DNA of 64,000 nucleotides from Cadophora sp. MPI-SDFR-AT-0126 (Eukaryota > Ascomycota > Leotiomycetes > Helotiales > Ploettnerulaceae). Shown here piece after piece: positions 7,627 to 64,000 of this stretch (position 1 is the stretch's first letter; each line of letters begins with the position of its first letter). The stretch is from the NCBI GenBank assembly GCA_020747065.1, contig JAGMVK010000002.1, positions 3,882,002-3,946,001 on the forward strand, in the 5' to 3' direction. The notes beneath the pieces were generated by a model. That model made no database searches, was not told the origin of the DNA, and saw nothing but the letters and a program-made list of their open reading frames with translations. A program made the position numbers and the translations under genes.

Positions 7627-10600
7627 TAGGGGTGATAAATGAAGGCGAATTTTTTGAAGATTTTGAATAAAGGACGAATCAAATGAATCGAATTTTTGGG
7701 ATCTTGATTCAAAATCTTCAAACCCTGATTGGCCCGATTCAAGTGGGGTTTTGACTAATTCGGGCTATTTATGAATGGGTTGAAGGAATCCTGAATGATT
7801 AATAAATTACAGTATTAAGTGACTGCAAAGATACCTCTAAAACGCCAAACACCCATAGTATATAGCCTTCGGAGAAGTACCTTGATAATCCTGAACATTA
7901 CAAAAAATGACATAAAATACTGGTCCGCTTGCCCTAGGCAAATCGACCGAATAAGCACTTTTCAAAGCTCTGTCGAATCCTCAAAATCTGTCGGTATACC
8001 GCGTTCAAGTCCGCTATTGTACACGCTTGCAGAGCCTTAATCTTCCGAGATCTCCATTGTATCTAGACTAGGGGTTAATACCGTAGACTCATCGGCTTAG
8101 GAGGCAGAAGGCTAGGTGGGAGCTTCCGCAGGAGCAGGAGGTTAAGGAGGATTCTCGCCTATACGTAGATTAGCATATACACATACAATGAGGATATATT
8201 CATACCATCTACCAACTTGCCCGGAATGTGGTCTAGTCTCTAAAGAATACTATTGGCGAAGGGTAGGATATCGTACTCCCTAGCCGCCTCGATCAACTTC
8301 TGATCGATCTCATCTTCCTAAGTATAAGCACTCCTTAAAAGTGTTAATACTCGCACTGTATCTGCCTTTAAAGCGTGACGGCGGATACTAAATTCGTCTC
8401 TATAACCACTAAAGAGGCGTTCTACGTTAACTTCGGAGCCAGAGACAGAGAGAAGATCACGCGCCGCCGCAGCTAAAAGTGGCTACTCGTCCTTATGTTC
8501 TTTCCATTACTTCCGTAAGAAGTCTGGAGACTTTGCAATAGACTTGTCGAACTCTGTTCGCGGAGTTGCAAACTAGTGTTTAAGCTCCGAAGTAGGGATC
8601 GCCGCGCCGGCATCCGCCTCCTTCGCCTTCTTCATTTGGATAGCTTTCCATTGCGTAATAGAGACTCCTTGAGGGCGCTCGGCCGGTCTAGATTAGCTCG
8701 GAGTTAAGCTTGTGATATTCAACGTTACTAGCTCCGGCTACTCTGTTTTGAAATACTTCTTGACTTTAGCTATAATCTCGGAGTATTGATCCGGTATTAT
8801 CATCTCTAATTAGTGAGTTTTATAACGCGGATCTAGGATATGAGCTGCGAATAGCATTATTTGATTATCAAGCTTCTTTATATATGTAACGTGTTTTGCT
8901 TTGCCCTTTGAGAACGCGTTTTGAATGGATATATTAAGGGCTGTAAAGTCGCTAACCCCTTCGATTACATTATCAAGGAGAGCCTCTAAATCCCAATAGA
9001 TATCGAGACTTTGTGAGATCGATGGCATAACTTCGGAGACTTTCAAAGTGTGGTCTTTAAACGGCTTTAGAACCTTCTGTAGTTAATAGAGAGCGATAAT
9101 CTCTTCCGATGAGGGCAGGAGGCACTTGACTTGCGGGTGAGTATTAACGAACTCTGTATACTCGGCTTTAAGCTTAAGGAATTGGTTAATTATATCGTAA
9201 GCTGAATTCCAGCGAGTGTCGATATCGTAAGTTAGCTTCCGATAGTGCGTGCAGGGCATGCTTTTGAAGTCTTACTCCCTAGACCCGGATCTCAATATCC
9301 AGAGATTGAGAAGGCGGATTTTGGCAATCGCACTTCGACTAGAGTCTCCCGGAATAGTGTAATTGTTGCTTTTATTCTCTTTATCCCACTTATTAAGTAT
9401 CTTCTTAGCTTCCTTCGCAGTGCCTGCCTTAAGATCTTGTAAGACGCCCTCATAAATGAGTGAGGTAACGTGAGCTAGACAGCGGATCTAACTCTTCCTG
9501 CCGTGAAAACGTATGCGGGGCCTCCCGATTGGGCTCACTTTATCGTCGAATTTGATCTTGAGAGAATCGTATAGAGACTAATAGAGCGTACTGTTGTTAC
9601 CGGCGTTGTCTCCCGTAATGGCGAGAAGCTTAGGCTTGAGCTTAAGCTCCTTAAGTGTCTTCTCAACTATCTTAGCTAGTTGTTCGCTAGTGTGAGATCC
9701 TTTGAGCTTAATAAACTTAATAACCTCCTCTCTCTCATTAAACTCCGGCGTAATCCAGTGCGTAATAATAGCGAAAATAGGTACCCGATTCGGTACTATC
9801 CAAATATCAAGGGTGAACGAGATAGTAGTGTAATTGTACTTAAGCTTAATTTTTAGCTTCCCCCTGCGTTCGATAAAGTCTGTATATATATGATTGCGTA
9901 AAGTAATACGACTTCTGTAGGCACAGGTTGTATTATGCGCTAAGAATATCTCTTGGAAAGCAGGAGTCTTAATAGCAGAGAAGGGTTGTCGGTGTTTTAC
10001 AAACTAATAGCGGATAGACTCCTTTACCGTGAGTCTTGCTCTCTGCCTAGGTCGACCGCTCCATGCGTCTGCCTCTGTATAATCTCCTCTACTAATAGCG
10101 CGGCCGTACCTATTAATCCGAGCATGGTAGGACTCCTTGGTAATACTGTGGGTTTTTAAATAGTCTCCTATACTAGAGGTAACCCCGCGGCGGTTCGATT
10201 CAAGGACCTGGAATCTCTTCCGAAGAGCATAAGGATTTCGAAGGCACTCTGTATAAGTCTACCGGAACTCTTGGAAGATCTTCGGTCTATCTTTATACTC
10301 TGAGTAAAAGCTTCCGTCTATAGCTTCCCTCTGCATATACTAATAAACGTGGCTGTTCTTATCTCTTTTCTTGCGAACGTACTTTTGTTTATTATCGGCC
10401 CACTTCTTAATAAGTTCGGTTTTCTCTGCGGGCGTTATATAACTACTATTCAATAGTGGCTCTAGTGTATCCGCGTCAAGCATATCATTATCTAACTCAC
10501 AGTCAAGATAGCCCGGAGGCGCGTAGACAATTGTATCTTCGCTAGTTAGAAGAGGAGAGGAAGGAGCGGGAGGAGAAGGAGCGGAGGTAGCAGGAGTCGA

Positions 10601-12015
10601 GGAAGGAGCCGGAGTTATGCTAGGATCAGGACGGACGCGCGAGGGATTCTGAGGGTTGAATTGAGGACGTTCGATGCGGGTATAATTCTGGGATGGCATA
10701 TTACGCCGGGTCCTAGGGGCGAAGAAATTCGCTGCGGCAGATGCTTTTGATTAAGCAGAAGCCATCCTATAATGTTATAATTAGCTATCGGTTTATAAAG
10801 TAATTAAATAAAGAAGAGTAGTTAGAGGAGTAGTAAAGTTTTACCTGCTCTCTGCTGAAGAGCTCGAGAATCGACGCGAAATAGGTAGTCGGAACGACAC
10901 TAAATAAACCATAATAAAGTATAAGGGAGAGTAATTTGAGCGTTAGAAATCAATATTTGATAGACAGCGGCCCTCCGGGCAAAATATTGAGATGCTTCGA
11001 TAATGTGGTAGTATCGAGAGAGGATGAGGAAAGGACGAGTTCACTCGCGTTTCGAGAATTTTAAATTGGTGAGTCGCGCTAGGGAAAGCTGTGTCCTTCA
11101 CCACATTCTATACCTTATAACTTCCCATTTTTCTTAGATACTTAAGAATTAAAATAGGTATTTACGTGTAAATAAGTTGGTGGAAGGCTCTTACTAAGTT
11201 TGGTGCATTTTAATTGAGTTTTGTATTGAAATGAAAGTTGCTTCAAAAAGTGTCTGTATACCTATAAACGGTTTTACTCATTTTCAAGAAGAAAGTTGTT
11301 ATAATACCAAAAAACGTCAGATCGAGCTAGAAATAATTTTCCTCGAAATCCGAAGGTCTGTTTATTAAATATTATGACTGGCAGGGCTATAGCTTTCAAA
11401 CGGCGTAGGGGACGAATTTTTAAATGCTAGGATATGGCTTGCAATAAAAAGATTTTGGCTAAACCTGTAATACTAGAGGCTACCTTGAGTGCTACTATTA
11501 TAAAAAATAGATCGAAGGCTCAATAAAAGTACAAAGAATCACCATATAAATAATTAAAGACTAAAATAAAACGTGCTGTTGTACACAAAGGATCCAAGTA
11601 GCTAAATACGGGGTGGATAAACACTTAACTTATACCCCGCACTGTATATCTCTGAATAACTTTGTCATTTTTGCGATAAATTGAGCTGCAAATACGGCGA
11701 ATGAAAGCTCTCTCTCTATAGGTTATGCTCTAAATACCTTCAAAGTATAGAGGAGTGTTTATGGCTTAATCATTTAGTGATAATTTATTGATGGCGGGGT
11801 AGAATTAATGACGTTCGGCAACCCGATAACACTAAACTTAGCAAACACGTGACGCGGACCGGTATTAGTCCGGCCTTTAAAATCATCCTGAATGAAGCAA
11901 ATGAAGGCTTTTTTTATTTAATTCGATGAAGATGAAGACCTTATTGGCTTCATCTTCATTTAATTCGAAGGTCTCGAGCTCGATTCGACTTCAAAATATT
12001 CAAATATCAGCCCTA
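7627..12015 (-). mobile_element. hAT transposon with perfect 8-bp target duplication
   Basis: A 4389-bp element flanked by ATGATCTC on both sides (7619-7626 and 12016-12023). Its ends are inverted: TAGGGGTGATAAATGAA at the left, and on the opposite strand of the right end TAGGGCTGATATTTGAA. The subterminal regions hold many short GAATC/ATTCG motifs and a hairpin (about 11926-11955). It carries a decayed hAT transposase in minus orientation. An 8-bp duplication and TAGGG ends are diagnostic of the hAT superfamily. Confidence 0.95.
8037..10765 (-). pseudogene. hAT transposase, nonsense-riddled
   Basis: Reading on the minus strand from a Met at 10765, the frame shows a Pro/Ser-rich N-terminus, then YWDLEALLDNVIEGVSDF and IMLFAAHILDPRYKT (around 8810-9046), and near the C-terminus the hAT dimerisation region (SEVNVERLFSGYRDEFSIRRH; about 8340-8480). 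Many in-frame stops sit where Gln or Trp is expected, for example TAG for CAG in the AYT-stop-EDEIDQKLIEAA stretch. That fits RIP-type CpA to TpA change. At least one frame change is also needed between the middle and the C-terminus. It is not functional. Its promoter side is the 1.2-kb AT-rich stretch 10770-12000. Confidence 0.87.
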
Positions 12016-56250: not shown

Positions 56251-57481
56251 CTTTTAACGTGCTGTGTAAGTTGATGACTATAGTAGCACGGCTAGGACCC
56301 TCAGGCCTAACGATCCGGTAAGGTGGGGTCTTATACAAAATTACAAAGTCTGAGAGTAAAAAAAAAGGAAGGCAGGAGCGCAAAGCGCCCTGAAGGACTG
56401 TACCAGCCAAGCCCTAACATACTTCCCCTAAAAACCCCTCATGTGTTCCCGGAGACATTGGGGATCAGCTCCCAAGCAGGCCCTTCCACCTGCTGCATAA
56501 CCAAAGTAGACATCTGTTCTCCTCTCCCTTCTCTCCTACTGCCCCTACTCCGCAAGCAGCCCCTCCCCTAACCCCCTCAACCCCTTTCCTTCCGAATATA
56601 CCGCATTTTCCCACTTAACCCTCTGCCAACCCCACACAAGACTTACCTCCTCGGTGGTGTCCCTTCCACTTTCGGGTATGTATATGTCGATATAGCCGGG
56701 CGCACCAAGACAGGCGGGAGAGGTAGTATGATATATAGAGAACCGAAGGTCGAGAGAGCCACAGGAAAGAACGCCTTTTGTCGTACACGTAGCGAGTCAT
56801 CCCGCGGATCCTGAGCTCGTGTTAGATTCGAAACGAAGTGAAAAACTCTGCGTCGCTACCCCAGAGGGCTCCGACCGATCGATCGTACTAGGCAATCAGT
56901 TCCACTGAACACCTCGGTGTGGTCCTGTTCCCTACACAAATTCTTAGTCGCTATCTATTAATGAACTACTGGCCGAATTAAGAGCTCCATGCTCCCCTCG
57001 AATAATGATCAGTAATAATATTTGGCTAGCCACGTAACTGTTTGGGGCCGACTGATCCGTCTGTGCTTGCATTACGGAGGTACAGACCAGGAGTAACTGA
57101 ATACGGCTAGCCTTGATGGGAGGAGGGGAGCCTGGAGTCAACACCACTTTACCTAAGGGAGCTAGCCCCCCTGAACAGGGTGAGAGGATGGAACCTGTAA
57201 CTCTCGTATTCGGCCTTATCCTAGTAAATCGTTCGCAAATATACTTTTTAATCCGTAGGCATTTCGTATACACAAAGATCCGAAGACCATTAACAAAGCG
57301 CCGGTCTCAGAAAAAGGTTTGTAGCCGACGCTTTTCGCCGCAGCCTCCGAAGCAAGATTGGGCTCAACTATTTAAGAGGTTGGTCTCCTTTTCTCGATAG
57401 AGCTCCATCTTCAGAGAACATTCCAACAATCACTTCGAATTTTTACATCCATCTCAACATCTTTATCTATCCAAGCTGAGG

Positions 57482-57582
57482 AAGTCGGGTTGACTCAACC
57501 CGACTTTATTTCCCATATGAACTTTTAGCGTAGAATTGCCGAGGGAGCCAACCCGACTTAGCCAACCCGATTTGTTAGGGTT
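57482..57582. repeat. palindrome plus AACCCGACTT repeats
   Basis: A 12-bp-arm perfect palindrome (57482-57493 / 57495-57506, one-base centre) built from AAGTCGGGTT, followed by two more CAACCCGA(C/T)TT copies at about 57549-57580. It lies just upstream of the CT-poor block and could be a recombination or protein-binding site. Confidence 0.7.
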
Positions 57583-57931
57583 ATGTCCAAATAAGCTCGG
57601 ATGCGGCTCAAACTCGAGTATACGTTGGTCCCGGTATAAGCGACGTCAACTCCGCCGAAACCCCCACCAGAACCCCATTATTAGGTGAGTTTTGCGAGCA
57701 AGTAGTTATCGTCGTCGAGTTTTGATGGGGGAAGCAAATGCACAGGCCAAGTCAGCCAAAATGTCGATCCCAAGCATAAAGTGAGTATAAAAGCATAAAA
57801 GTATAAAATCGGAAATTACAGCCAGCCATCACACGCATGGGGGGCAGAGCGTGGATTCCGAACGCGTAAAGCAAGGAAGACGCATAGATTAGAAGAGAAA
57901 GAATCAAGCCAACCCAATTTACATTTCGATT

Positions 57932-60900
57932 ATGGATCCATTCGTGCATTTCCCAAGTCAGCGTGTGGTTGTGTGTTCCCAGTGTAAGCATGCAGTGTTA
58001 CCCAGCCATATCAATACGCATTTGAGGGATGAAGACAAGCATAATTTGCCCCAGGAGGATCGGGCGCGTATTATCCAGCAAATCCAGGCCATTGAAGGGT
58101 TAATTACAGATCGAGCAGAGTTGAATCAATTGGTTTTACCGTTAGCAAGTAGTCCCCCCATTCCCGAGTTACAACCACCAAGGACAAATGGAATGCAATG
58201 TCAATTACACGATGAAGCCCAAAGGCCGTGCCGATTTGTTATTTGCAACGAAGACGAGATCCGAAAACATTGCCGAAAGAAGCACGGATGGGAGAATAAG
58301 CAGAAGGGTAGGCCCAAAGCAGGAACAGAGCAGGATTTCCCGTGGAGAACCGGAGTCCATTGCCAGCATTTTTTCGTCCGTGGACCAGGAGCCCAGTTTT
58401 TTGAGGTCCACGCAGCAGAGCCCAGCCCAGCCATGCCATCCGGAGACGTTGATTTGGAGGCCATCAAGAATGAATTAGGACGGGTCATGAAGCAAGCCGC
58501 CGAAGAAGAACATCGTCAAATTACCGAACCCGAAGAAGCCAGAGAACCAAATTCATGGTTGTGTCGAGTAGGGTGGGTAGATCATTTGGGACATTTCGAC
58601 AGGAAGGCATTAGGGGAATTGGTTGCACCAGTCAAGGAAGATGAACCGGAGTTGCAGATATTATGCACGGCATTTGATTGGTTGATTCAGGATGCACAGT
58701 ACCATGCCGTTCGGAAAGTGGTGGGTTTAGAAGCATTGTTCGAGGCCAATAAGAAGGAAGTGAACAAGGAGACCCAGATGCCGTTTAATAGTTGGATGGA
58801 TATTACCACCGTCAAGACGTATACGGATGTATGCAAGCAGTTGTTGCGTTATATATTCCGGTCCAAAGACGTTGAACCCGAGAAGCGGCCGGCATATGAG
58901 TTGACGGAAAGTCAGCAGATGTGTATTGAAGATGTATGGACCAGTATTGAGGAATTGGTATGGTGGAAGGAGGAACAAATGGGAGATTCGGAAAGCAGGG
59001 AAGAAGAGGAGGAAGAAGAATCAGACGAGGAGATCGAAAGGATGGGCCGGATCCAGCGGAAGATTTTGCGGTTGTGGATTGCATTATTCAACCAGCCATT
59101 GCAGGACGACGAGTACAAGAGTGTTGTGATCAGTGGGGTGGCCGTTTTGGGAATGCGGGAAGACGATGGGTGGTTGGATGCCGAGGATTATACGCCCAAA
59201 TATTCGGCCGTGATCAAGTTGGCCCGGTTGATGGTAGTTCAAGAGGCGTACGAGAGGCGACGGGAAGCCATTGAACAGTATGAGAACCGCGGTTTGAGTA
59301 GGAAGAGAGCCAAGGAGAAAGCGTCCAGCCATTATGTTTTGACGCGGGGTTTAGTTCGTGCGTTTATGACCATGGCCCATGACGGGAAGGATCCCACGCC
59401 CATGCAATGGTTATACCGTAGCCGGTCATACGGGTTCAAGATCCGGTACACCACCACCGCCGAGGGGAAGATCCAGTGGATTGGGGATGACATTTTATAT
59501 CCGCATATGAGATTCAGCATGACGAAGTTCCGCAGTATGGTTCATGGGTTGGTTGGAGAGGCCAGAGAGGAGTTGTTTGGGAAGTTAATGATGGTAAAGA
59601 TGAGTGCAGACCAAGAAGTGGATATGAAGCAGGTCCCCCCGATCCATTGGGATAAAATGGTGGACCAGCCATCCGAAACCAAGGTGGGGTGGTCATTTTT
59701 AGACGATCAGCGGAATCAGTTTGCAGCATGCAAGCAGTGGTGGTTGTATGAGCGGATGTATAAAGAAGCCGGATTGCGGGAGCATTTCATGGACCAGGCC
59801 GGGAGGTTGAAGAAGAAAGCCGTGGCCGCATACCAGCGTCATGTAGAGCGGTTTCAAGAGTTGTTATGGGGTTTGATGCATTTATGTGGTGGGCAGCCGG
59901 CCAGAGCACCGGAATTGTTAGGGATGCGGTGGAAGAATACGGCGTATGGTGGGGTCCGTAATATTTTCATCGAAGAAGGGTTGGTGGCATTCGTGGCCCA
60001 GTATCATAAGGGGTATCGGAGCAGCGGGAACATCAAGATCATCCACCGGTATTTGCCCCGGGAGGTGGGAGAGTTGTTGGTGTATTATTTGTGGTTGGTT
60101 TTGCCATTTTGGGAGAAGTTACAGTTCCAGATGACCGGAAAGCCGAGTTCAAGTCCATTTTTATGGGGGGATGGCCAGAAGAAGGAGCACCGACAGTGGA
60201 CGGGACCCAAGCGGAGGCAGCCCAAGGCGGCAGAGATGGATGATGTCCCCGAAGAGAGGAGAGCAGAATTAGAAGAAGGAGATGGGGATGAGAGCAGGCA
60301 ACAAATGAGGTTGTTGTCCCAGCGTCAAGCACGCGCATGGACATCCGAACGAGCCCGGAAGATTTTGAAAGAAGCAGCCATGAGGTGGATGGGTGTAGAT
60401 GGGTTGAATATTAGCAGTTACCGCCAGATTGCCATTGCGATATCCCGGCGGTATTGCCGAGAGGACCGATTTGAGGAGGAGAAGACGAAGTTGGAAGAGA
60501 TTGAGGGTTGGGACGAGGATAATGCCGATGGGGACGATCCATGGGATTTGCAAGCCGGCCACGGGACCCATGTTGCAGGCATGATTTACGCCAGGGAGTT
60601 GATGGAAGGTGACAATTCCATCATCAGCCGCCGTGAGAAGTTCCGACGAGTCAGCCATGTGTGGCATTGTTTTTTGGGGTTTCCGTCAGCACATCAAGGT
60701 GTCGGGATGAGTGGGAGAGCCAAGAGGAAGCGGCAGGCGTATGAAGAAGAGATGCAGGATGCACAGATGGCCCGGTGGAAGCGATTACGGGGTGTTGACA
60801 TCCATGCGGAGTTGGAGAAGATGTTGGGGAGTGAGGCACGGTTCCGTGGATTGCAAGAGCCCGTGTTGCAAGCCATCATGAAGCACCAGAGCCCCATTTT

Positions 60901-62935
60901 AGGCGTGATGGCGACGGGGGTTGGGAAGACATTGTTGTTCCAGTTACCAGCCAAGAGCATGCATTCCGGCACCACCATTGTCATCAGCCCATTGGTTTCA
61001 TTACAAGAGCATATGGTGGAACGATGTCAGCAATTGGGCATTTCATGTGTGAAATGGGATCCAAGGCAATGCCATTCCCCCAGCCAGATTGTCATCGTCA
61101 CGCCCGAGTCAGCGGTCAGCAAGACATTTGGGACGTTTTTGGACCGGTTGCAAGGGTTGCATCAGTTGGACCGGTTTGTATTCGATGAGTGTCACACGGT
61201 TTTAGACAGCACCCCCGAATTCCGTCCGAAGATGAGGCGATTAGGCGAGTTAGTGGAAAGGGGGGTGCAGATGGTTTATTTGACGGCGACATTGCTACTA
61301 CATGCCGAGCCAGAATTCATGAATATCATGAAGGTTCGGGCCGAAGATGTTCACATATTCCGAGCACCCACCAGCCGTCCCAACGTTGCGTATTCCGTGG
61401 TTGAGTACGAGGCGGATGAGTTTGGGAGAGGGGATATTACAGCTGTTTGCAAGTTAGTGGAAGAGAAGTTGGAAGAATACCCCGCACCAGCTAAAATCAT
61501 TATATACAGCAGTAGTATTGTCACCACCCAGGAGGTGAGTAGTGCATTAGATTGCCACGTATATTACCGAGATGTAGGTGATGCAGTCGTCAAAGATGAG
61601 ATCCGGAAGGCGTGGGAGAGTTCAGATGGACGTGTTATTGTTGCCACCAATACATTTGGATTAGGCATTGACCGGCCAGATGTTCGGGTAGTGATTCATA
61701 TTAGGCCTATTTACTAGATGCGGAATTATAGCCAGGAGAGTAGGCGAGCCGGGCGGGATGGGTTAAGGAGTCAAGTCATTATCATGATGCCTGTTGGAAA
61801 GTAAGAGGTATTGCAAAAGTCGCATGAGCAGTCACAAAGACAACCGCCCAAGTTTCATATTAGCATGACGGCGAAGGAGAAGGAGAAGATTGAGAGGCAG
61901 AAGGTTGAGCGATTTATAAGTAGTGCCAAATACCGACGGATTTATTTGGATCAGGAGATGGATGGGAGGATTGATCGAGTGAAGTGTGAGGACGAGGAAG
62001 AGCGTTGCGATATGTGTTGCGAGAGTGATGCCATGATGGAAGAATTAGAGGCCAAGCGGCAAGCACATGTTGAAGAAGCCCGGAAGGAGCAAGAGAAGCA
62101 AGGCCGGTTGATGGATAGTGCCATTGATATCCCATCCAGCAGTATTCGAGTTTCCAGCGTCCGCAGCAACGGATTAGACAGCAGCGATGGTCCATTTCCC
62201 AGTTCGCCCTCAGCATATTCACAGAGCAGCACCGTGAGTTTTAATCAAGGGTTTGCGGCAGATCAGATTAGTCCAGCAGAACGGGAAGAGTTCCAGTCCC
62301 AGCAGATCCAGCGGCAGCAGCAACGGTTATATGTTCAAGAACATAATCAGCAAGAAGGCCATGACATATGGGATTTGGAAAATCGATTGGATATGTGGGT
62401 TAGGAAGTGCCCGTTGTGTTACGTCCGACGGTGTGCGGGCCATTCAGTTGAGATCTAGCATACGTTGGACGAGTGCGTCGATCCGGAGAAAGGATTAGTT
62501 GCCAGCGAAGTCGAGGCATTAAAGGGCATTCATTTCGAGAGATATGCAAGTTGTTATGATTGCGGCGTTGCGCAGCAGATTTGTACAAGGTGGGAGGAGA
62601 TCCGTGAAGGGAATAAGAAGTTTCAGCGGATCCCAGAGGGGGTTTGTCAGTATAATCAGATCGTACGGCAAGTGGTAGCCGCTATTATGGTTGCAGGGCC
62701 GTCAGAGGTAACGGATCAGGAGGTTTGGTCACATATGCGGACAATAGGCATTTGGGGAGTCAACCAGCAGTTGGATCCGGGTGAGAAAGCAGAAGTCAAG
62801 AACGGGATATTGAAGTAGTTTGGGCAGAAGGTAATTTAGGGGTCGATTGAAGCGAGTGTTTTGTTGCAAGTGTTTTACCGGTTAACAGTTGGATTAGAAG
62901 ATTGGAGGAGAAGAGTTAGAGTAGGTAAACGATAG
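57932..62935 (+). pseudogene. DUF3505 / tyrosine-recombinase-like / RecQ helicase fusion (telomere-linked-helicase-like)
   Basis: A single intronless frame of 1667 codons with five premature stops at 61715, 61802, 62456, 62816 and 62837. Residues 1-165: DUF3505 (OrsD-type) Cys/His region with CSQCKHAVLPSHINTHL and EIRKHCRKKHGW. Residues 500-890: a recombinase-like core with R658 (GQPARAPELLGMRW), K693 (YHKGYRSSGNIKIIHRYLP), R831 (SSYRQIAIA) and H877...Y886 (GHGTHVAGMIY). Residues 965-1290: RecQ-type helicase with Walker A ATGVGKT (K999), DECH (D1085), TATL, and SSGRVIVATNTFGLGID-like motif VI region, then QESxRAGRDG beyond the first stop. The C-terminus is Gln-rich with a CPLCYVRRC motif. Helicases of this kind are usually subtelomeric. 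The stops fit CAG/CAA/TGG to TAG/TAA. The start is the first Met of the frame. Confidence 0.88.
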
Positions 62936-62954
62936 AATAGAATATTAAGGGTTT

Positions 62955-63123
62955 AAGCCGATTTAAGTGCCCGCGGTAGGATGTGAAGCGTTTAGGAGCA
63001 AGCCGATTTGAGTTCCCGCAGTAGAAGATTGGGGTTAAGGGACAAGCCGATTTGAGTGTAAGGGGTTAAGCCGATTTAAGTGCCCGCGGTAGGAGGATCG
63101 GGGTAAGGGGACAAGCCGATTTG
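62955..63123 (+). repeat. AAGCCGATTT(A/G)AG short repeats
   Basis: Five copies begin at 62955, 63000, 63044, 63068 and 63113. Two carry the longer form ending TGCCCGCGGTAG and one the variant TTCCCGCAGTAG. They directly follow the helicase gene and resemble, loosely, the AACCCGACTT repeats upstream of it. Confidence 0.85.
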
Positions 63124-64000
63124 AGGACCAAGCTGTTGCACGCAGCGCCATGAGAGGAAGCCCCCGCCGGCGAGGCGGCAGTCCAAAAGGTAGTAGGGTG
63201 TTAGTTTTAAGATATGGGACAACCCGTTGTATTATGGGAGTGTATTTCATAGGGGCAGGTAGAAAAGGCAATAGTAGATTTGACGTAACCCGAACCGGTT
63301 CATTTAAGTGGGATTATTTATATCCCGATAGAACACGTTTCCAACAAGAAAGGAAAGATTATTTGATCGGGTTAGTATTGATTTATGTCCCGTGAGGGAA
63401 TATAGTTGTATAATGCAGAGAGGCAGACGGATTTGAAAGGGGTGAGTAAGGGCGGTAGTCAAGGAAAGCAAAGGGTTGAAGTATTAGAGGACAGTCAGTA
63501 GAATAATATTCAAGGGTTATAGGGATTTTATGAGAAGGGGTCATGATTTAAGGTAAAGGTTAATGTTATTAGATGCTAAAGAATAGTGAGGGTTAAAAGG
63601 GAGTATGGTAGGGTCGATGGATTTTGGGATCATATGTCCGAATCAAAGAATTTAGCGCGGTTCGGTTGATTAATTCAATTCGTAAGTTGATTTATATGTT
63701 TGATCGGATATATATAAAAGGAATTTCACGTAATCGTAGGTCGGATAATATGGATAAGGAGTAGTTGGGCAGGAGAAGGGGCGGGTTTGGTGTTTTAGAT
63801 GCGGGGCGCGTCGGATTACATAATCAAAACAATGGAATTTTAGTGGTGGGCGGGGTTAATAGAAGGGGTTTGCAGTGATTTTAATCGATATAATATTAAT
63901 ATAAGGGGTGGGAATGAATAAATACGAGATAGGGTATCGAGGCAATTTTTGATCGGACGATTATCAGTTATGGTGGTGGAATAATGGGATAAATTAGATT
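63124..64000. other. non-coding tail of the CT-poor block
   Basis: AT-rich with G-rich patches and no gene recognised. It keeps the CT deficit (two CTs in nearly 900 bp), so the block continues past the window edge. Confidence 0.7.

What the first reader, a model, noticed from the sequence alone, without database searches (positions are those of the whole stretch)
57652..64000. A 6.3-kb block whose + strand is almost free of the dinucleotide CT
No CT occurs for 3643 consecutive bases (57652-61294) and only about 12 in 6.35 kb, where several hundred would be expected from base composition. The complement AG is frequent, so the effect is strand-specific. It spans promoter, gene, repeats and non-coding tail, starts abruptly, and is absent from the rest of the window. 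That rules out simple codon preference or ordinary RIP (which acts on CpA on both strands). Possible causes, all inference: a strand-biased cytosine deaminase acting on CpT in a single-stranded or R-loop intermediate; selection against AG on the antisense strand (no 3' splice sites there); or evasion of a host recognition system.
Basis: seen in the sequence. Interest (0 to 1): 0.97.

Follow-up and report, generated by a model that had tools for sequence, protein, structure and literature searches.

The report
Telomere jumper purged of CT
A fungal mobile element at a chromosome end has no CT over 3.6 kb of one DNA strand, and because related copies sit at CT in the targets that can be read, it has probably purged CT so that its own kind cannot land in it.

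Summary
In detail: 0 CT on the + strand in 57652-61294 (152 expected), 12 in 57652-64000 (254 expected), AG not depleted. The block is the body of a mobile element whose protein joins an OrsD zinc-finger domain, a tyrosine-recombinase fold (predicted model) and a RecQ helicase. It lies at a contig end; sister copies run into TTAGGG repeats. The ban is ancestral: RIP-decayed copies carry CT mostly as CTA, where the window has CC, and a distant relative (36% protein identity) on another contig is nearly CT-free. CT-normal paralogues sit at telomeres in the same orientation. Codon statistics fit rejection of CT, not CT-to-TT mutation. The element's 5' end is CTATCC. Where the target can be read (2 insertions with empty sites, 4 nested ones), CT stands at the join or fits it. 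Best reading: CT is the landing dinucleotide, purged from the strand on which a newcomer could insert in a viable orientation. Sequence facts are shown; recombinase action, loss of the distal end and selection are inferred. Few empty sites could be read.

The parts
57467..57660 (+). 5' end zone of the element: terminal CTATCC (57467-57472), inverted repeat 57482-57491 / 57497-57506, two further half-sites 57550-57559 and 57564-57573; contains 10 CT
   Evidence: sharp start of homology between copies behind different flanks; repeats and CT positions; CT at 57596 in 11 of 11 rows
57652..61294 (+). stretch without any CT on the + strand
57652..64000 (+). CT-poor body of the element, to the contig end (12 CT)
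57932..61717 (+). ORF of 1,261 aa; closes short of the family's usual length
   Evidence: most full-length relatives are about 1,540-1,730 aa
57938..58288 (+). OrsD zinc-finger domain (PF12013), residues 3-119
   Evidence: E 4.8e-17
59465..60589 (+). tyrosine-recombinase fold (about residues 512-886), with invariant H877 and Y886
   Evidence: predicted model of residues 370-935 aligned to XerH, Cre, XerA; invariant columns
60812..61702 (+). RecQ helicase domain, residues 961-1257
   Evidence: TIGR01389 span; PDB relatives RECQ5, RECQ1, BLM
62946..63125 (+). short direct repeats in the tail
   Evidence: families D1-D3
62930..64000 (+). C-poor non-coding tail (C 0.11, G 0.31), 2 CT

Best explanation
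This is a chromosome-end mobile element whose copies sit at CT in the targets that could be read, and it has likely purged CT from the outward-pointing strand of its body so that newcomers of its own kind cannot insert into it. Shown: the 5' end CTATCC, the CT-free body, copies that run into the telomere, CT at the join in the readable targets, and body hits only in RIP-decayed copies (2 of 2). Inferred: the tyrosine-recombinase domain joins the element's terminal CT to a CT in the target; the DNA distal to the join is lost, and the element with its telomere becomes the new chromosome end. A CT on the same strand inside a resident element would then be a landing site that truncates it, so CT is selected out of gene, promoter and tail alike. 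AG would be tolerated because an insertion at CT on the other strand would point inward and leave a fragment without a centromere.
For: Empty sites: C37 GACGAC|CTATCC against GACGAC|CTATGT on C2; C4 GGTACC|CTATCC against GGTACC|CTAGGA and AGTACC|CTAGGG. Nested: C34 copy 2 in copy 1, where five other copies read TATCCTAAG, two TATCTTAAG and L016 TATACTAG; C37 copy in copy at GGTT|CTATCC, where L008 has CTTAAT; two 47-bp 5' stubs on C37 joined at CC|CTAT. 18 of 19 listed junctions begin CTATC; the base before is C 13, T 5, A 1. Five copies identical over 4,264 bp lie behind five different flanks and end in only two telomere junctions, so the moving unit runs from CTATCC to the telomere. 7 of 7 copies that run into TTAGGG point to it. 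Recombinase fold. Ban ancestral. Rejection rather than directed mutation. CT-normal paralogues at telomeres exclude position alone.
Against: The ban covers CTG, CTC and CTT, while the clearly readable targets are CTA. Only 2 of 19 junctions have empty sites in hand; one more distant homologue of the C4 site reads TT; at C37 copy-in-copy L003 reads CCTAG, which fits less well; window, L009 and L033 show no CT at the nested places, so the target copy's state is taken from decayed sisters. Junctions were found with a pattern that allows only C or T first, so 18 of 19 is partly by construction. RIP-decayed units with over 100 CT still moved, so CT does not stop movement and the cost must fall later. 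L071 is not fully CT-free in its 5' 2.7 kb. Microhomology joining at CTA is not excluded. Catalysis, loss of the distal end and strength of selection were not tested.
Confidence: 0.5

Rival explanations
1. Strand-biased mutation: a cytosine deaminase acting on CT of the displaced coding strand (R-loop or telomere-end single strand) turns CT into TT.
For: Strand-specific, G-rich coding strand, C falls towards the telomere in L071 and L036.
Against: Third bases before T-starting codons show no shift from C to T (14 T of 57, 15 of 69; lnL +3.23 and +4.39 for rejection; 4 C cells of L071 left out of the likelihood). CT-normal paralogues in the same orientation near telomeres.
Confidence: 0.05
2. 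RNA-level ban: the sense transcript, read through to the telomere, is cut or sensed at CU, or its antisense must lack AG splice acceptors.
For: The ban follows the coding strand and starts near a TATA-like conserved stretch.
Against: It begins upstream of the TATAAAAG repeats at about 57786-57811, runs through the whole tail to the telomere, and does not spare CTC (antisense GAG). It does not predict CT at the joins.
Confidence: 0.1
3. A host DNA-level system (nuclease or surveillance of the 3'-ended strand) recognises CT as non-telomeric, and the element mimics the CT-free TTAGGG strand.
For: TTAGGG has no CT; the ban extends to the telomere.
Against: CT-normal paralogues persist within about 0.7-3 kb of telomeres in the same genome. 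It does not predict CT at the joins.
Confidence: 0.12
4. CT is a stop signal for the RecQ part, which tracks inward along the 3'-ended strand from the telomere to the element's 5' end.
For: RecQ helicases move 3' to 5' (recalled), that is along the banned strand.
Against: RIP-decayed units with over 100 CT between telomere and 5' end were moved with their full 5' end, five times identical.
Confidence: 0.05

Closest known systems
Telomere-linked RecQ helicase genes of fungi, and yeast Y' elements
   Same: RecQ-type helicase gene repeated at chromosome ends; PMC4522978 (passages read) describes such a family in Mycosphaerella graminicola
   Different: No CT ban and no recombinase domain are mentioned in the passages read; here the unit has a defined 5' end and moves
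Cryptons and other tyrosine-recombinase DNA transposons (recalled; PMC3212892 seen in a listing)
   Same: Tyrosine-recombinase fold, joining at a short shared core
   Different: Here fused to OrsD and RecQ, with one defined end and a telomere as the other
Target immunity of Mu and Tn7; self-insertion of Sleeping Beauty and piggyBac (PMC3952818, passages read)
   Same: The problem of inserting into oneself; that paper reports self-insertion at the TA and TTAA targets
   Different: Known immunity is protein-based, and that paper found neither eukaryotic transposon immune; here immunity would lie in the absent target
Restriction-site avoidance in phage genomes (recalled)
   Same: A recognised motif is purged, sometimes by orientation
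   Different: There the opponent is a host enzyme and the motif is longer; here it would be the element's own kind and a dinucleotide

Membership tests
Telomere-linked RecQ helicase | RecQ helicase domain | tested here: met
Telomere-linked RecQ helicase | copies at chromosome ends | tested here: met
   7 copies run into TTAGGG; others lie inside contigs
Tyrosine-recombinase transposon | tyrosine-recombinase fold | tested here: met
Tyrosine-recombinase transposon | catalytic R, K, H/R and Y residues | tested here: inconclusive
   invariant R676, K693, H877, Y886; the assignment to catalytic roles is recalled, not tested
Tyrosine-recombinase transposon | two defined ends with a short core | tested here: inconclusive
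   one defined end with CT(A) shared with the target; the other side is the telomere
Telomeric retrotransposon | reverse transcriptase domain | tested here: not met
   no such Pfam match in the ORFs of the window, L071, P0001 or P0060
Transposition target immunity | insertions into own copies are rarer than expected | tested here: inconclusive
   4 nested insertions found; the 2 in bodies are in RIP-decayed copies; numbers too small for a rate
Repeat-induced point mutation (RIP) | CA to TA change on both strands | tested here: not met
   CA is high (O/E 1.41) and TA low in the block; RIP is seen in sister copies

The most novel reading that the evidence does not exclude
A class of telomere-capturing recombinase element, with zinc finger, tyrosine recombinase and RecQ in one protein, moves whole chromosome termini by joining its CT to any CT, and has made itself immune to its own kind by erasing that dinucleotide from the outward strand of its body: self/non-self discrimination written as the absence of two letters.
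Probability: 0.45. Interest if true: 0.95.

Novelty: new variant of a known kind. Interest (0 to 1): 0.9.

Why it matters
If right, a mobile element can gain immunity to self-insertion by base composition alone, with no immunity protein, and fungal telomere-linked helicase genes of this clade are mobile chromosome ends driven by a tyrosine recombinase. It would give a simple sequence test (CT on the outward strand) for members in any genome and a handle on how chromosome ends are replaced. Even if the mechanism is wrong, a dinucleotide missing from kilobases of one strand in two distant relatives needs an explanation.

Tried and rejected
Rejected: protein or codon effect; RIP as the cause; telomere position and orientation as sufficient cause, since paralogues L026-L028 are CT-normal there (L153 of the second source is CT-normal too, its place relative to a telomere unknown); the domain set as the difference, since the CT-normal paralogue on C2, C7 and C9 also has OrsD in its frame; CT-to-TT mutation; CT as a stop for a tracking helicase. 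The AT-rich tail of L151 has little C at all and is not a CT-specific ban.

The first structure model, of a shorter relative, matched nothing. Leftover CT along decayed copies showed no trend. In the tree three forks are open, one row (P0071) is very long and the CT state of the protein-only rows is unknown.

Paper searches that listed no report of such a CT ban: (listings seen; passages read only in PMC4522978, and PMC3952818). Subscription papers and preprints are mostly outside that library.

Full report
CHECK. The finding is correct. Between 57652 and 61294 the + strand has no CT (152 expected), and 12 to the contig end (254 expected), while AG is slightly above expectation. The CT-free run of 3,643 bp compares with a longest run of 205 bp elsewhere in the window; no other dinucleotide behaves so. 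Recoding the ORF with synonymous codons gives 182-190 CT instead of 5. With CT set to zero, the other dinucleotides of the ORF lie at 0.65-1.35 of expectation.

FAMILY. The genome holds about twenty further copies or fragments, most of them RIP-decayed. Seven of seven copies that run into TTAGGG at a contig end point towards it (C1, C4, C8, C14, C15, C34, C37). Others lie inside contigs. Homology between copies starts at a sharp point, CTATCC, at window 57467, behind different flanks. The first 200 bp carry an inverted repeat and further half-sites whose sequence differs between the window copy and the others. This zone contains CT (57596 in 11 of 11 rows, 57661 in 10 of 11, not the window). 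Further in, no non-CTA CT is shared by more than 3 of 11 rows.

THE BAN IS OLD. Decayed copies do contain CT, but 65-100% of it is CTA (19% in the rest of the window), and most aligns to CC in the window copy (94 of the 116 places shown for L003): RIP turned CCA into CTA. Non-CTA CT is 0-12 per kb in 18 family loci (expected 25-49) but 40-69 per kb in 4 paralogue loci (expected 54-63). Some of the 18 are pieces of one copy, and identical sister loci were left out. Of the window's 12 residual CTs, 11 align to copy L033 and 10 are CC there. A contig filed under an Erythrobacter MAG (L071), taken as fungal from its gene content, encodes an intact 1,583-aa relative with 36% identity in the best segment: 21 CT in the ORF against a null of 206-219, and 1 CT in 2,567 bp of tail; its 5' 2.7 kb are leaky. 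Its upstream RecQ neighbour is CT-normal (O/E 1.14) and groups with this genome's CT-normal paralogue (support 100/100), apart from the two CT-poor genes.

NOT POSITION, NOT DOMAIN SET. The paralogue on C2, C7 and C9 also carries OrsD and RecQ, ends 2.2-3.1 kb from the telomere in the same orientation, and its flank (C7, L027) has no CT deficit up to about 0.7 kb from the telomere.

REJECTION, NOT MUTATION. If CT were turned into TT, synonymous third positions before T-starting codons should move from C to T. They do not: A, G and T keep their ratio (14 T of 57 in the window gene, 15 of 69 in L071; lnL +3.23 and +4.39 for rejection, the 4 C cells of L071 left out). CT-bearing variants look lost rather than converted.

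WHY CT. The insertion sites give the lead. Two copies have readable empty sites: C37 GACGAC|CTATCC against GACGAC|CTATGT, and C4 GGTACC|CTATCC against GGTACC|CTAGGA and AGTACC|CTAGGG; a more distant homologue of the second reads TT. On C34 a second copy sits inside a first one where five other copies read TATCCTAAG, two TATCTTAAG and L016 TATACTAG, while L009 and the window have CC. On C37 one copy sits inside another at GGTT|CTATCC, where L008 has CTTAAT and L003 CCTAGT. Also on C37 two 47-bp 5' stubs are joined at CC|CTAT; the same place is CCCTAT in the complete unit and CCCCAT in two other copies. Of 19 junctions listed, 18 begin CTATC (the search pattern allowed C or T first), and the base before is C 13, T 5, A 1; a twentieth, on C10, with G before CTATCC, is visible. 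Both hits in element bodies are in RIP-decayed copies; the stubs are too short to judge.

HOW IT MOVES. Five copies identical over 4,264 bp, with the same RIP scars, lie behind five different flanks. Two share one telomere junction (one base different) and three another. The moving unit is therefore the stretch from CTATCC to the telomere, moved after RIP and so in trans. I infer that the recombinase joins the element's CT to a target CT and that the distal piece is lost. Only insertions near chromosome ends on the outward strand would then be viable. Newcomers that hit a resident truncate it, so a CT-free outward strand is protected, and AG is free to stay.

LIMITS. The ban includes CTG, CTC and CTT although clearly readable targets are CTA. 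In L071 1 of 21 residual CT is CTA, suggestive at best (P 0.017 from base frequency, 0.14 from the base after T). CT-bearing units can still move, so the cost must fall later. Catalysis, loss of the distal piece and selection strength are inferred, and microhomology joining is not excluded by so few empty sites.

VERDICT. Real, old, strand-specific, tied to one clade of chromosome-end elements, and best explained by purging of the element's own landing dinucleotide.

Noticed in passing
window 8001-12000: CA O/E 0.48-0.68 with raised TA: a stretch with the look of RIP on both strands.
   Followed up: no
window 57482-57573 against L050-L060 5' ends: The inverted repeat and half-sites near the 5' end keep their layout but have a different sequence in the window copy (AACCCGACTT) than in sister copies (AGATTCATT), as if recombinase binding sites had switched specificity.
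   Followed up: partly
L003-L007 (C8, C34, C4, C14, C37): Five RIP-decayed copies identical over 4,264 bp behind five flanks, with two telomere junctions: recent movement of dead units.
   Followed up: yes
L057 at 552 (C2 about 2,128,085): A 26-bp stub of the element's 5' end followed at a CTA by unrelated DNA, perhaps another element using the same site.
   Followed up: no
L071:7218-9784 and L036 tail: C falls towards the telomere until almost none is left, and G and A rise.
   Followed up: partly
G000 search: TTAGGG arrays occur only on the + strand of contigs (172 forward, 0 reverse): no contig starts with a telomere.
   Followed up: no
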